A stretch of 64,000 bases of DNA. Source: Psychrobacter coccoides (lineage in GTDB: Bacteria; Pseudomonadota; Gammaproteobacteria; Pseudomonadales; Moraxellaceae). The DNA is taken from NCBI RefSeq assembly GCF_017498085.1, contig NZ_JAGBKM010000005.1, positions 62,001 through 126,000 of the forward strand. Reading direction: 5' to 3'. Made by a program: the position numbers and the translations under genes. Below are positions 34,944 to 39,263 of the stretch, piece by piece. Positions within the stretch are counted from its first letter, which is position 1. Every line of letters starts with the position of its first letter. Under the pieces are notes generated by a model. The model was not told where the DNA came from. It was given only the letters and a program-made list of their open reading frames with translations, and did no database searches.

Positions 34944-35621
34944 ATGAGTGAATTGCCCATGTGGAATAATACCCTACAGACCTTTGTGATCAGTATAATG
35001 ACAGCAGTTGGCTTGTCATTGAGTGCTTGTAATGGTGCCCAACAAGATATCGAGCCTGATACCAGTAGTGACGACACTACTGCAACGGAGACTGTACAAT
35101 CAAGTCCGACGCCAGAGCAGGATATGGATGGCGCCACTGTGGCGCAGAGCTCGCCTGTCAAATACGATGTGGCTTCTTGGGACAGTAGTAGCGAGAGGTC
35201 TGTGAGCATCAATGAGCTTGATAAGATTCAAGCGGTTTATGGCAAAGTGGTGAACAGTGATGAAAATAGCTTGGACTATGCCAGCAACCCTGCTACCAAG
35301 TATCGCTTTATGGATACGGATGCGCCTTATTTGGACTTAATTGATTCTGAAAAATACCTTGAGCTTGGGTGGTACTATGCCAACCCTACGGACTCTGATG
35401 CAGAAAAAGCACTGAGCAAAGCCCACGCTAAAAAGTCTCATCAGCTTGCCCAGCAGCTCATGGGTGCTGACGGTGCTAAAGTGGTCACTGAGATGCTCAA
35501 TGGTCAAATCATCAAAAACAAAACCATCGGCGGCCAAAAAATAGAATTGGCCAAATGTGAGTTTTATAGCTGTATGCTGGTGTTTAATAAATCAGGTGAG
35601 CAGCAAGTGGACGCCAGCTGA
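34944..35621 (+). CDS. Putative lipoprotein, unknown function
   Basis: A 225-residue protein with a lipoprotein signal: a hydrophobic segment and the lipobox LSLSAC (Cys near residue 29). A Thr/Ser/Asp/Gln-rich low-complexity linker follows (about 30-75), then a folded-looking domain containing ELDKIQAVYGKVVNSDE, YLELGWYYANP and CEFYSCMLVF with two Cys that may pair. No family was recognised. A second ATG at 34959 would give an equally good signal. The pabC start codon lies one base after its stop codon, so the two are translated from one message. Confidence 0.75.
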   Translation: MSELPMWNNTLQTFVISIMTAVGLSLSACNGAQQDIEPDTSSDDTTATETVQSSPTPEQDMDGATVAQSSPVKYDVASWDSSSERSVSINELDKIQAVYGKVVNSDENSLDYASNPATKYRFMDTDAPYLDLIDSEKYLELGWYYANPTDSDAEKALSKAHAKKSHQLAQQLMGADGAKVVTEMLNGQIIKNKTIGGQKIELAKCEFYSCMLVFNKSGEQQVDAS

Positions 35622-35622
35622 T

Positions 35623-36534
35623 ATGACCGCAGCGGCGAGCACTTGGCAGCGACTACATCCTCATACGCTAGAGCAAACAGCGCTCACGCCTGACAACCGT
35701 GGTCTGGCTTATGGTGACGGGTTTTTTAGTACCCTGGGTGTCATTGAGGGGATGATAGTGTGGCAAGACTATCACTATCAGCGCCTGATCTCGCACGCCG
35801 CAGCCCTGCAGTTAGCGCTTGATAGCCAAGCCCTCATGGCAACGCTACAAGCATGTGCTCAGCAGCTCGAGCAAGGCATGATGAAGGTGGTCGTCACTCG
35901 AGCAGTGCAGCCTGTACGAGGTTATGGCTTTACGCCTGGTGCGGCAGGCAGCGCCTCTGAAGTCTGGCTCAAATCAGTCGCCATGCCCATCGATACGGTG
36001 AACAAATTACTTCTGCCAGATGGGCGCACTCTCTTGATGCAGCCTGCGATGACAGTCAGTTGTTTGCAGGCGCAGCTGGCTTGTTTGCCGCCACCTTTGT
36101 CTGGGCTAAAAAGTCTCAATCGCCTCGATAGTGTACTCGCCAGTGGTGAGCTACAAGCGCTGAAAGTCACCGAGCCAAATATCGGCGAAGGGCTGGTGCG
36201 GGATATGAGTGGTAGCTGGGTCGAGGGCACGATGAGCAATGTGTTTTATCAGCTATCATCACGGTCTGCTGCAGGTGAGACGCAAACCGATAGCGAGTAT
36301 CTGCTGTCAGGGCAGTGGTATACACCACCGTTGACAAGCTCTGGTGTCGCTGGGGTGATGCGTCAAGTCATCATTGATGCACTTGCTAATACAGATCGAC
36401 CAGTAGTCATGCGTTCATTACATGATGAGGATTTGCCCAATTTAACCCAGATGTTTTTTTGTAATGCTTTGCGTGGGGTGATGCCCGTATCTGCTCTAGT
36501 TTTGCTGTCTGGGCAGGCAGTTGAGTTTAACTAG
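35623..36534 (+). CDS. pabC: Aminodeoxychorismate lyase
   Basis: PLP enzyme of fold type IV that releases pyruvate from 4-amino-4-deoxychorismate to give p-aminobenzoate for folate. Motifs: DNRGLAYGDGFFSTLGV, KVVVTRAVQPVRGYGF, the PLP-Lys region SGLKSLNRLDSVLASGE, and GSWVEGTMSNVFYQL. The start at 35623 gives 303 residues and is coupled to the preceding lipoprotein gene; an upstream in-frame start at 35557 would overlap that gene. In related bacteria mltG follows directly; here a DpnI-like cassette stands between. Confidence 0.93.
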   Translation: MTAAASTWQRLHPHTLEQTALTPDNRGLAYGDGFFSTLGVIEGMIVWQDYHYQRLISHAAALQLALDSQALMATLQACAQQLEQGMMKVVVTRAVQPVRGYGFTPGAAGSASEVWLKSVAMPIDTVNKLLLPDGRTLLMQPAMTVSCLQAQLACLPPPLSGLKSLNRLDSVLASGELQALKVTEPNIGEGLVRDMSGSWVEGTMSNVFYQLSSRSAAGETQTDSEYLLSGQWYTPPLTSSGVAGVMRQVIIDALANTDRPVVMRSLHDEDLPNLTQMFFCNALRGVMPVSALVLLSGQAVEFN

Positions 36535-36538
36535 TCGC

Positions 36539-36730
36539 TTATTTCACATCAAAGATATTAAATTTAGTCTCGATTAAATCATCATAATTCAACTCAATAT
36601 CTTCGTTCCTATATCTCTCTTGTGCTTGCATAATCGCTGAAGAATCGTCCTCAGCTTTTATTTCTATAATAGCGCTCATCGTTTCAACTATTTCTATTTC
36701 ATAGGTACTCAAAATTTTATCATTACTCAT
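36539..36730 (-). CDS. dpnD: DpnD/PcfM-like small protein, partner of the DpnI-like gene
   Basis: A 63-residue protein with YEIEIVETMSAIIEIKAEDD, then AIMQAQERYRNEDIELNYDDL, matching the short DpnD/PcfM pattern (xEVxIxETLxRxVExxA ... Y.N.EIxLDxxDF). In Streptococcus pneumoniae dpnD lies next to dpnC (DpnI); its function is unknown. Start taken at ATG 36730; a GTG four codons earlier also fits. It is 96 bases downstream of the DpnI-like gene on the same strand, and its stop codon lies 4 bases from the pabC stop codon, so it converges tightly on the host operon. Family assignment is from memory of the motif, hence moderate confidence. Confidence 0.72.
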   Translation of the reverse strand: MSNDKILSTYEIEIVETMSAIIEIKAEDDSSAIMQAQERYRNEDIELNYDDLIETKFNIFDVK

Positions 36731-36826
36731 GCTTACTCTCACTTTTTTACGAATGGTGCTGCTGATCCTAGCAAAAAGACTTTAAAGAAGTGATCGTCTT
36801 TTGTTAACTAAGCTTAGGTAAAGCAG

Positions 36827-37591
36827 TTACAGGACCTTTCGATATTGACCACGCCCCACAAACTCAATAATACCCTTATCTCGTAACACTTGTAGCTGTT
36901 GGCGAATTTTGTCCTTAACATGATTATTATCAGGGTGCTTAAGCTGTAGGTCGTCTGCAAAAGCATAAACTTGTTGCAGGCTAAATTTATCACCCAATCT
37001 GTCAATGCACTGCCAAACATCAAGTGTCCAGCCACGTGCCTGCTGTGATTGTTGGCGTAAAAATAGCGTTTTTTGATATTGTTGTTGGACGCTGTCTTTT
37101 GGAATAATTTGTTGGCTTTTGACCAAAAACACTTTGCCTGAATCAGGCACTCGGCGCAGGTCAATATTGCAGCCGACCCAACCTGCACGCCTTGCGGTTG
37201 CTGGTAGCGGCTTACGTTTGATAATCATGTCAGGTTTGAAAAAATGCTTAGGAATGATTAAGAAGTTGTTAACGCTTAGTTGTGCTGAATAAGTCAAAAA
37301 GAAAAAGCTTGGATTATCCTCACTATTAATACGTTTAAGCATAGTGTCGTAAGCGCCATCATTGATAATATTACTTAATTTGGCTTTTTTACTTTTTAGC
37401 TCGTATTGCTCGGCACAAGTTGCACAATAAAAGTCAGCGACAGGTTGATTGTTGCTAAATTCAGCTAACGGTTGAATACCACAGTTGGGACAGTAGCCAT
37501 TGTCTTTTACCCATGCTTCACTTAATACACGAATGATTTGTGACGGTGAGCGATAATTGGCAGCGAGTGCTTGATTAAAGTTTAAGTTCAT
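36827..37591 (-). CDS. dpnC: DpnI-like methyl-directed type IIM restriction endonuclease
   Basis: The 254-residue protein is collinear with DpnI, which cuts GATC only when the adenine is methylated. Zinc-finger Cys34, Cys37, Cys56 and Cys59 (CPNC, CATC) and catalytic PD-(D/E)xK residues Asp53 (PVADFYC), Glu64 and Lys66 (YELKSKKA) are all present at the DpnI positions. Long conserved stretches follow: INDGAYDTMLKRI, PTARRAGWVGCNIDL, LFLRQQSQQARGWTLD, and the C-terminal winged-helix reader with KDKIRQQLQVLRDKGIIEF and GRGQYRKVL. Expected role: destruction of Dam-methylated phage or plasmid DNA. No methyltransferase is adjacent, as expected for this class. The gene looks AT-richer than its neighbours. 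The ribosome site is weak. Confidence 0.95.
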   Translation of the reverse strand: MNLNFNQALAANYRSPSQIIRVLSEAWVKDNGYCPNCGIQPLAEFSNNQPVADFYCATCAEQYELKSKKAKLSNIINDGAYDTMLKRINSEDNPSFFFLTYSAQLSVNNFLIIPKHFFKPDMIIKRKPLPATARRAGWVGCNIDLRRVPDSGKVFLVKSQQIIPKDSVQQQYQKTLFLRQQSQQARGWTLDVWQCIDRLGDKFSLQQVYAFADDLQLKHPDNNHVKDKIRQQLQVLRDKGIIEFVGRGQYRKVL

Positions 37592-37673
37592 AAGAGTCTG
37601 TTATTTTGGTGATGGATGAGAGAGGGGTAAACGGATGGCTGGGATGTTGTAAAAATCATAGTTATCAATACTA

Positions 37674-37843
37674 GGGCGTGTCCTCAATTCAATCGAAGGA
37701 TACCTAAATGGGCTAAAAATGGCTAAATCTTGCCAAACAGCGTTAAATAGCTAGGTAATATCCCGATATTATCTGCGCTATTTTCCTTGTTTGGCGGCAA
37801 TTTATCTCATTTTTATCTCCATTTTTAAAATGAGGACACGCCC
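37674..37843. mobile_element. MITE-like element, copy 2 (170 bp)
   Basis: Same 13-bp terminal inverted repeats as copy 1 (gggcgtgtcctca at 37674-37686, tgaggacacgccc at 37831-37843) and the same TA on both flanks (37672-37673 and 37844-37845). It is inserted in the opposite orientation to 15015-15183. It is non-coding and lies in the 355-base gap between the DpnI-like gene and mltG. The rest of that gap holds the presumed promoters of both genes. Confidence 0.87.
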
Positions 37844-37946
37844 TAGCACGCCTTTTATAGACTAATTAGAGACGACTAAACAAATCCCATTGAAAAGCGT
37901 CCAGTTCAATGCTAAATTCTAGCAAACCTCTGCCCTGTGAGCTGTC

Positions 37947-39263
37947 ATGAGTATGCCAACCCCCGACACCCCTTCTGATGATCCTAATAATAAGCGGACT
38001 GATGATAATGCCAATGCCGCTAAGGGCTCGACTGATGGCCTAGACTCAGCGCCTGTAGCAGCTGATGAGCAAGCACCAGTAGCGACTGACGAGAGCGAAG
38101 CGGACAAAGCACCAGCGACTGACATCTCCTTGATCAGCAGCCAAACCAAGCCTCGTAAGTACAAAAAAGACAACCCATCGTTTTTTATGCAGCGTGGCTA
38201 TCAGATATTATTGGTACTGGGCTTGATAGCGGCGTTTTTGTTGGTCATGGTCTATCAAACGTTATTTGGACGCATCGAGCAGCCAGAGCAGAAGGTGACC
38301 ATCGAACAGGGGGATACCTATTATGGCTTGCTGCCACAGTGGCAGCAGAAAATCCCGCTGTTTTCGAGTACCGTGGCCAAGGTCTATATCAAGTCGCAAA
38401 TCGATGCGCCCTTGCATGCCGGTATTTATCAGCTGCCTGCCAACCCAACCATCGCAGAAGTGCTGCATATCCTAGGGCAGGGTGCAAAAGTTGCCATGGT
38501 CAAAGTACAAATCATCGAGGGGAGAACTGCAAGTGAGCTTTATCAAAACCTACGTGACAACCCCGGCATCAAAAAAGAAGTCCTGGTCACAGATGGCGGC
38601 GATGCCAGTAATGCCAGTATCGCACAGGCGCTAGACTTGGTGGATATCTTGCCAGATTCGGTGACCTCTCATAGCGATCCTATCGTACAGTATAATCTAG
38701 AAGGCTGGTTCGCGCCTGATACTTATTATTATGGCGAAGGGGCCAGTGACAAACAGGTCTTGACCGATCTGTATAAACGTCAGCAGCAAACGCTAACTGA
38801 GGCATGGGAAAACCGAGCGCCAGATCTGCCGTACAAAACCCCGTATGAAGCGCTGATCATGGCGTCCATCATCGAAAAAGAAACCAGTATCGCCGAAGAG
38901 CGCCCCTTGGTATCCGCAGTATTTAATAATCGCTTTGCTCAAGGCATGCGCATGCAGACTGACCCGACCATCATCTATGGGATGGGCGAGCGCTATGACG
39001 GTAATATTCGCCGTGCCGATATCGACGAAAAAACGTCTTATAACACTTATCAAATCGATGGCCTACCGCCGACACCGATTGCACTACCGTCAGCAGCTTC
39101 TATCGAAGCCACACTGCATCCCGCTGACAGTGAGGCATTATACTTCGTAGCGACCGGTCATGGCGGGCACAAATTCACCAATAACTTAGCGGATCACAAT
39201 CGAGCGGTACAAGAGTACCTCAAGGTGATGCGTGAAAAAAAATCACAAACCCCGCCAGAGTAA
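37947..39263 (+). CDS. mltG: Endolytic murein transglycosylase MltG
   Basis: Inner-membrane enzyme that cuts nascent glycan strands and ends their elongation. The cytoplasmic N-terminus (about 1-70) is acidic and disordered. A single membrane helix follows at about 88-108 (ILLVLGLIAAFLLVMVYQTL), then the periplasmic YceG domain with the catalytic-Glu motif LIMASIIEKETSIAEE, FNNRFAQGMRMQTDPTIIYG and a C-terminal YFVATGHGGHKFTNN. It has 438 residues, longer than the usual 340 owing to the N-terminal extension. tmk starts 16 bases after it, the standard order. Confidence 0.95.
   Translation: MSMPTPDTPSDDPNNKRTDDNANAAKGSTDGLDSAPVAADEQAPVATDESEADKAPATDISLISSQTKPRKYKKDNPSFFMQRGYQILLVLGLIAAFLLVMVYQTLFGRIEQPEQKVTIEQGDTYYGLLPQWQQKIPLFSSTVAKVYIKSQIDAPLHAGIYQLPANPTIAEVLHILGQGAKVAMVKVQIIEGRTASELYQNLRDNPGIKKEVLVTDGGDASNASIAQALDLVDILPDSVTSHSDPIVQYNLEGWFAPDTYYYGEGASDKQVLTDLYKRQQQTLTEAWENRAPDLPYKTPYEALIMASIIEKETSIAEERPLVSAVFNNRFAQGMRMQTDPTIIYGMGERYDGNIRRADIDEKTSYNTYQIDGLPPTPIALPSAASIEATLHPADSEALYFVATGHGGHKFTNNLADHNRAVQEYLKVMREKKSQTPPE

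What the first reader, a model, noticed from the sequence alone, without database searches (positions are those of the whole stretch)
36539..37591. DpnI-like methyl-directed restriction cassette inserted between pabC and mltG
Seen: a 254-residue protein with zinc ligands Cys34/37/56/59 and catalytic Asp53, Glu64 and Lys66 at the same positions as DpnI, plus the C-terminal winged-helix region, together with a DpnD/PcfM-like small gene. Both are on the minus strand inside a plus-strand pabC...mltG-tmk run that is normally continuous in gammaproteobacteria. Known: DpnI cuts GATC only when adenine is N6-methylated, so a carrier must lack Dam methylation. Inference: this is an acquired defence island that destroys Dam-methylated invading DNA and keeps this lineage Dam-free. 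The gene looks AT-richer than its surroundings.
Basis: partly seen in the sequence, partly recalled or inferred. Interest (0 to 1): 0.82.

Follow-up and report, generated by a model that had tools for sequence, protein, structure and literature searches.

The report
DpnI allele of a swapping locus
This is a genuine DpnI-type enzyme gene pair, a system that cuts adenine-methylated DNA, and it sits at a spot where related bacteria repeatedly exchange it for restriction systems of the opposite kind; a conserved, GATC-centred DNA element next to it may sense which state the cell is in.

Summary
Confirmed: window 36827-37591 (-) encodes a DpnI orthologue (54% identical to pneumococcal DpnI; all zinc, catalytic and methyl-pocket residues kept) and 36539-36742 (-) a DpnD-family protein. 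The Psychrobacter genome has no Dam-family methyltransferase. A Psychrobacter homologue (Psp4BI) has already been shown to cut Dam-methylated DNA, so the enzyme is not new. It is not a recent insertion: 84 of 105 congeneric genomes have DpnI, intact or decayed, at this pabC-mltG junction. Twelve others carry, at exactly this site, a Dam-family methyltransferase, a DpnA-like methyltransferase and one of four nucleases; seven have neither. On an aroE tree, all 11 placeable R-M alleles are separate switches; near-identical relatives differ only in the cassette, with an import footprint in pabC. This resembles the pneumococcal DpnI/DpnII locus. Two points look new. First, a 21-nt element (TAACAAAAGACGATCACTTCT) precedes dpnD; it is near-invariant in dpnD-bearing alleles, absent from R-M alleles and unique in the genome, although the cassette genes almost lack GATC. 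Second, three cultured DpnI strains also carry an intact-looking DpnII system off-site, on small contigs related to known plasmids, which the simple model forbids. The methylation-sensor reading of the element is a hypothesis.

The parts
36827..37591 (-). dpnI-like gene (254 aa, methyl-directed GATC endonuclease; PD-(D/E)XK + zinc site + winged helix)
   Evidence: Pfam DpnI + DpnI_C, PADLOC mREase_II, PDB 4esj/4kyw, residue checks
36539..36742 (-). dpnD-like gene (DpnD-PcfM family; likely ATG start at 36730, 63 aa, predicted beta-beta-alpha-beta fold)
   Evidence: PF14207 E=1.9e-8; AF2 model pLDDT 78.5, no fold match with E<=0.001
36786..36806 (-). conserved 21-nt element TAACAAAAGACGATCACTTCT upstream of dpnD, GATC at 36792-36795, inside the 17-nt spacer of a promoter-like pair (36807-36779)
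   Evidence: near-invariant in 64 alleles, unique in the genome with up to 3 mismatches, expected 0.00 by chance in the window, promoter-like scan match 9/12 which on its own is no evidence of function
36764..36767 (.). second GATC of the dpnD upstream cluster (TTTTGCTAGGATC), 28 bp from the first
   Evidence: the 28-bp spacing recurs in part of the relatives
37671..37846 (.). MITE with 22-nt terminal inverted repeats (CTAGGGCGTGTCCTCA...), about 40 copies in the genome, inserted in the dpnI-mltG divergent intergenic region
   Evidence: the spacer in the closest relative G016 is about 173 bp shorter
35557..36534 (+). pabC (aminotransferase class IV), left border of the exchange site
   Evidence: PF01063; import footprint in its 3' end in other genomes
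37947..39263 (+). mltG/yceG, right border of the exchange site
   Evidence: PF02618

Best explanation
The two genes are the DpnI-type allele of a genus-wide, two-polarity GATC restriction locus between pabC and mltG in Psychrobacter. The DpnI protein cuts GATC when the adenine is methylated. The host makes no such mark, so its own DNA is safe and Dam-methylated incoming DNA is destroyed. Sister lineages carry the opposite allele at the same site: a Dam-family methyltransferase, a DpnA-like methyltransferase and a nuclease, read as systems that mark GATC and destroy unmarked DNA. The alleles change places by homologous recombination in the flanking core genes, so a switch reverses which DNA counts as foreign. 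Shown here by sequence: gene identity, residue conservation, absence of Dam-family genes, site identity, switching, and the recombination footprint in pabC of other genomes. Inferred: cleavage by this particular protein, GATC specificity of the R174 and R430 R-M types, natural transformation as the route, and any role of DpnD.
For: Enzyme identity and residues. No Dam-type gene in the own genome. DpnI at the same site in 84/105 genomes: 70 intact, 14 broken, truncated or split by contig ends. Twelve genomes have at this site D12 + DpnA-like + one of four nucleases: MutH-like (6), R430 type (3), R174 type (2), DpnII (1). D12 proteins pass the Dam-family cut-off and match DpnM best in the PDB; the MutH-like nuclease matches MutH over its length, below the curated cut-offs; R430 matches a PADLOC type II REase at 335 bits. 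On the aroE tree the 11 placeable R-M genomes need 11 changes. G019 (R-M) and G009 (DpnI) are 98.8% identical up to inside pabC, then 86% over about 260 bp, then unrelated cassettes, then 98.6% again from 81 bp before mltG. Truncated dpnA next to pabC in four DpnI alleles (G056, G063, G041, G069). Psp4BI, a DpnI homologue from a psychrophile, digests Dam-methylated DNA (PMC11037411); its source is taken here to be Psychrobacter sp. 4Bb (L175) from the enzyme's name. GATC is the second most avoided tetramer in the window, observed/expected 0.55.
Against: A MAG, G073, has DpnI with D12b/R430. The tree rests on one gene near the site, and one genome per species was used. There are no methylome or cleavage data for this strain.
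Confidence: 0.87

Rival explanations
1. A recently acquired stand-alone defence island: DpnI/DpnD jumped in between pabC and mltG and has since kept this lineage Dam-free.
For: Lower GC than the flanks, minus strand within a plus-strand run, empty sites in some relatives.
Against: Present at the same site in 84/105 genomes; the window DpnI is sister to that of G016, as aroE is. Low GC is also seen for drg in Neisseria, judged a relatively old event there (PMC516771).
Confidence: 0.08
2. The conserved GATC-centred element upstream of dpnD is an ordinary promoter or regulator site in which GATC is incidental; it says nothing about methylation sensing.
For: GATC lies in the spacer of a promoter-like pair; other words of the core are more over-represented than GATC once trinucleotide content is allowed for (GATC ranks 24th by observed/expected).
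Against: Two to four GATCs at repeated spacings (7, 41, 28 bp) in a stretch with about 12-15 GATC per kb, while cassette genes have 0.1-0.4 and control intergenic DNA 1.1; the element tracks dpnD (64/5/2/9, Fisher 4e-7).
Confidence: 0.6
3. The cassette is kept mainly for something other than restriction, for example effects on gene expression or biofilm as proposed for the gonococcal DpnI homologue Drg.
For: Drg is reported to enhance viability and biofilm formation (PMC4269198 title and abstract).
Against: Repeated exchange with R-M systems of the opposite polarity and conserved catalytic residues point to restriction as the selected function.
Confidence: 0.07
4. In the strains that have both systems the paradox is technical: the small DpnII contigs come from mixed cultures, or the DpnI there is silent.
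For: G073 is a MAG; several congeneric DpnI genes are broken or split.
Against: Three independent cultured isolates; their DpnI genes have no internal stop and keep all key residues; near-identical or similar plasmids are known from Psychrobacter.
Confidence: 0.5

Closest known systems
DpnI/DpnII(/DpnIII) alternative cassettes of Streptococcus pneumoniae
   Same: One chromosomal site, either a DpnI + DpnD cassette or a GATC R-M cassette with Dam-type MTase and the single-strand MTase DpnA (PMC3573125, PMC12707154).
   Different: Different genus and site (pabC-mltG); four nuclease types found in the R-M alleles; an extra plus-strand gene (X188 or X166) between dpnD and dpnI in most DpnI alleles; a conserved GATC element upstream of dpnD.
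Psp4BI and FcyTI (characterised DpnI homologues, PMC11037411)
   Same: Same PD-(D/E)XK-winged helix family. Psp4BI is from Psychrobacter by the paper's description of its source as psychrophilic and the enzyme's name; the DpnI of Psychrobacter sp. 4Bb (L175) is 79% identical to the window protein.
   Different: Only the enzymes were studied there; Psp4BI was only partly active in vitro. Locus exchange in Psychrobacter was not described in the passages read.
drg / dam exclusion in Neisseria (NmeBII, Drg)
   Same: A DpnI-type nuclease replaces dam; dam+ and drg+ genotypes exclude each other (84 isolates, PMC516771).
   Different: There drg is inserted in dam itself; here whole cassettes are exchanged between two unrelated core genes.
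CfrBI promoter-methylation control
   Same: A recognition site in a promoter region of a restriction locus changes transcription when methylated (PMC12707154).
   Different: Proposed here only by analogy, for a system without its own methyltransferase.

Membership tests
DpnI (Dam-replacing, methyl-directed endonuclease) | Catalytic D53, E64, K66 and zinc ligands C34, C37, C56, C59 | tested here: met
DpnI (Dam-replacing, methyl-directed endonuclease) | Methyl-binding pocket L129, R135, W138, G140 | tested here: met
   positions from PMC4117772; invariant in the alignment with pneumococcal DpnI
DpnI (Dam-replacing, methyl-directed endonuclease) | C-terminal winged-helix domain | tested here: met
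   PF17726 DpnI_C, 112 bits
DpnI (Dam-replacing, methyl-directed endonuclease) | Cuts Gm6ATC and not GATC | not testable with these tools
   Shown for Psp4BI on Dam-methylated DNA (partial digestion) and for FcyTI on both substrates (PMC11037411)
DpnI (Dam-replacing, methyl-directed endonuclease) | Host free of GATC adenine methyltransferase | tested here: met
   no PF02086, no PF05869 in the own genome; the one PF01555 hit is a type III Mod-like protein. Type I and type IIG MTases were not searched.
DpnD-PcfM | Match above the curated cut-off and position next to dpnI | tested here: met
   34.6 bits against 25; adjacent to dpnI; dpnD found in 59 of 68 intact DpnI alleles with pabC in view
Alternative Dpn-type cassette locus (pneumococcal kind) | Mutually exclusive DpnI and GATC R-M cassettes at one site | tested here: met
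   84 DpnI, 12 R-M, 7 with neither, 1 cut by a contig end, 1 without an mltG hit among 105 genomes; no site has both a DpnI and a complete R-M set
Alternative Dpn-type cassette locus (pneumococcal kind) | DpnA-type methyltransferase in the R-M allele | tested here: met
   12 of 12 at-site R-M alleles; not detected on the off-site DpnII contigs. Single-strand specificity is not testable here.
Alternative Dpn-type cassette locus (pneumococcal kind) | R-M alleles specific for GATC | tested here: inconclusive
   DpnII above the Pfam cut-off and Dam-family MTases above the NCBIfam cut-off; MutH-like nuclease below curated cut-offs; R174 and R430 specificity inferred

The most novel reading that the evidence does not exclude
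The conserved GATC cluster upstream of dpnD is a methylation sensor. When the cell becomes GATC-methylated, through an incoming MTase allele or plasmid, the element changes dpnD expression, and DpnD restrains DpnI. That would let the locus change polarity without suicide and would explain strains that hold DpnI together with a DpnII system.
Probability: 0.2. Interest if true: 0.8.

Novelty: new variant of a known kind. Interest (0 to 1): 0.55.

Why it matters
Two opposite restriction polarities exchanged many times at one site make reciprocal DNA barriers between close relatives, and give a natural comparison series of species that differ mainly in this cassette. How a cell survives the switch, and what DpnD does, are open questions; the GATC element and the strains with both systems make them testable.

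Tried and rejected
Recent-insertion reading: rejected on genus-wide occupancy. R-M scar inside the window itself: not examined base by base; dpnA scars were detected in four relatives only. X188 (plus-strand gene between dpnD and dpnI in most relatives, absent from the window's genome): no Pfam, PADLOC or NCBIfam match, AF2 model pLDDT 76 without a fold match at E<=0.001 in PDB or BFVD. DpnD model: no fold match at E<=0.001. RNA structure in the dpnD upstream region: z -0.22, none. PDB profiles of the MutH-like and R430 nucleases: nothing relevant. D12 genes in front of DpnI in Bacteroidota first looked like intact MTases beside active DpnI; they lack the conserved C-terminal end and run into a partly shared tail, so they may be inactive.

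Full report
What is there. The ORF at 36827-37591 on the minus strand is a full-length DpnI: Pfam DpnI and DpnI_C, PADLOC methyl-directed REase, PDB DpnI with E=1.4e-95 over residues 1-253, 54% identity. The small gene at 36539-36742 is a DpnD-PcfM protein above the Pfam cut-off. GC content is lower than in the flanks, as stated.

Host state. The window lies in a 3.05-Mb genome whose relatives named are Psychrobacter. The genome is 99.99% complete and has no D12/Dam gene, no phage-type Dam and no MutH. Its one N6_N4 methylase belongs to a type III Mod-like protein. Type I and IIG methylases were not searched. So the host is predicted not to methylate GATC, as a DpnI host must not.

Age and site. 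DpnI occurs in 84 of 105 genomes of the genus. I fetched the pabC-mltG junction from all genomes in which mltG was found and read the alleles: 70 intact DpnI, 14 broken, truncated or split across contigs, 12 R-M, 7 without DpnI or R-M genes, 1 cut off by a contig end, and 1 genome without an mltG hit. Two of the seven (G104, G046) have other genes in the gap. DpnI is thus an old resident of this site. The window's DpnI and aroE share the same nearest relative, G016.

The opposite allele. The 12 R-M alleles have a Dam-family MTase, a DpnA-like MTase and one of four nucleases: MutH-like (6 genomes), R430 with DUF6996/6997/7226 domains (3), a small PD-(D/E)XK-like protein R174 (2) and DpnII (1). 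The MTases pass the Dam-family cut-off and are closest to DpnM in the PDB. GATC specificity is well supported for DpnII, plausible for the MutH-like type, which matches MutH below the curated cut-offs, and only inferred for the other two.

Switching. On an aroE tree of 94 genomes the 11 R-M genomes that could be placed need 11 changes, and shuffled labels need about as many (10.6), so R-M alleles show no clustering by descent. Close pairs show what happens: G019 (R-M) and G009 (DpnI) are 98.8% identical up to inside pabC, 86% over the last 260 bp of pabC, unrelated across the cassette and 98.6% identical again from 81 bp before mltG; G026 and G027 show the same pattern. That is the footprint expected of allele replacement by homologous recombination. 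Four DpnI alleles keep a truncated dpnA beside pabC. The tree uses a single gene about 3 kb from the site, a quick method and one genome per species, so the number of switches is approximate.

What is known. Alternative DpnI, DpnII and DpnIII cassettes at one site are known in the pneumococcus (PMC3573125, PMC12707154), and exclusion of dam by a DpnI homologue in Neisseria (PMC516771). A Psychrobacter DpnI homologue, Psp4BI, was partially purified and cut Dam-methylated DNA partially (PMC11037411); I take its source to be Psychrobacter sp. 4Bb (L175) from the enzyme name. The cassette in the window is therefore a member of a known family. The Psychrobacter locus as a switching site was not found in the papers searched; the searches were few and the library is partial.

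A GATC-centred element. GATC is rare in the cassette genes: 1 in 11.4 kb of pooled dpnD, 0.35 per kb in dpnI, with 61 of 76 dpnI sequences having none, against about 3.2 per kb in the D12 genes. In the stretch just upstream of dpnD it is common: 15.2 per kb between dpnD and X188, 11.6 per kb between dpnD and dpnI, against 1.1 in a control intergenic region and 0 in 5.4 kb of dpnI-mltG spacer. The cause is a conserved element with core TAACAAAAGACGATCACTTCT, near-invariant over about 20 nt in 64 alleles with 51 distinct 70-mers, and further GATCs at repeated spacings of 7, 41 and 28 bp. In the window it lies at 36786-36806 (-), is unique in the genome and falls in the spacer of a promoter-like pair. 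It is absent from all 12 R-M alleles and tracks dpnD rather than X188. Five dpnD-bearing alleles lack it. It does not fold as RNA. GATC itself is not the most over-represented word there once trinucleotide content is allowed for, so an ordinary promoter that happens to contain GATC is not excluded. A methylation-sensing operator would have a precedent in CfrBI (PMC12707154).

Exceptions. Either one partner is silent, or the contigs do not come from the same cells, or exclusion is not absolute. Genome-wide, Dam-family genes and DpnI avoid each other (4 of 84 against 12 of 21, Fisher p=1.9e-7), without correction for kinship.

Wider pattern. In Bacteroidota and relatives DpnI often follows a D12 gene directly and is followed by DpnD and a DpnA-like gene. 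These D12s lack the conserved C-terminal end. In one pair (L228, L229) the DpnI part and the tail are nearly identical while the D12 bodies differ, as if the DpnI module had been joined to different D12 genes. Some such neighbours were already reported as frame-shifted (PMC11037411). In several other Moraxellaceae only D12 and DpnA fragments flank DpnI. This suggests, without proof, that DpnI modules repeatedly landed in GATC R-M loci and disabled the methyltransferase.

Verdict.

Noticed in passing
window 37671-37846: MITE with 22-nt inverted repeats in the dpnI-mltG divergent spacer; about 40 copies in the genome.
   Followed up: partly
L058, L060, L107 and other DpnI loci, between dpnD and dpnI: X188: orphan protein of about 160-190 aa on the plus strand, one or two copies, found almost only at this site (65 genomes); in some genomes replaced by an unrelated 164-166 aa protein.
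   Followed up: partly
L157, L158, L159, L168, L169: Small contigs and plasmids with a D12 + DpnII pair and no dpnA detected; three of them in genomes with intact DpnI.
   Followed up: partly
L226-L230, L234, L239, L246-L248: D12-DpnI-DpnD-DpnA gene order in Bacteroidota and relatives, the D12 without its conserved C-terminal end.
   Followed up: partly
window 1-64000: CGCG is strongly avoided (observed/expected 0.16), CCGG too (0.58); not explained here.
   Followed up: no
L149, L148, L154: In G046, G038 and G073 about 5 kb with a roughly 1020-aa protein and further genes lies between the cassette site and mltG.
   Followed up: no
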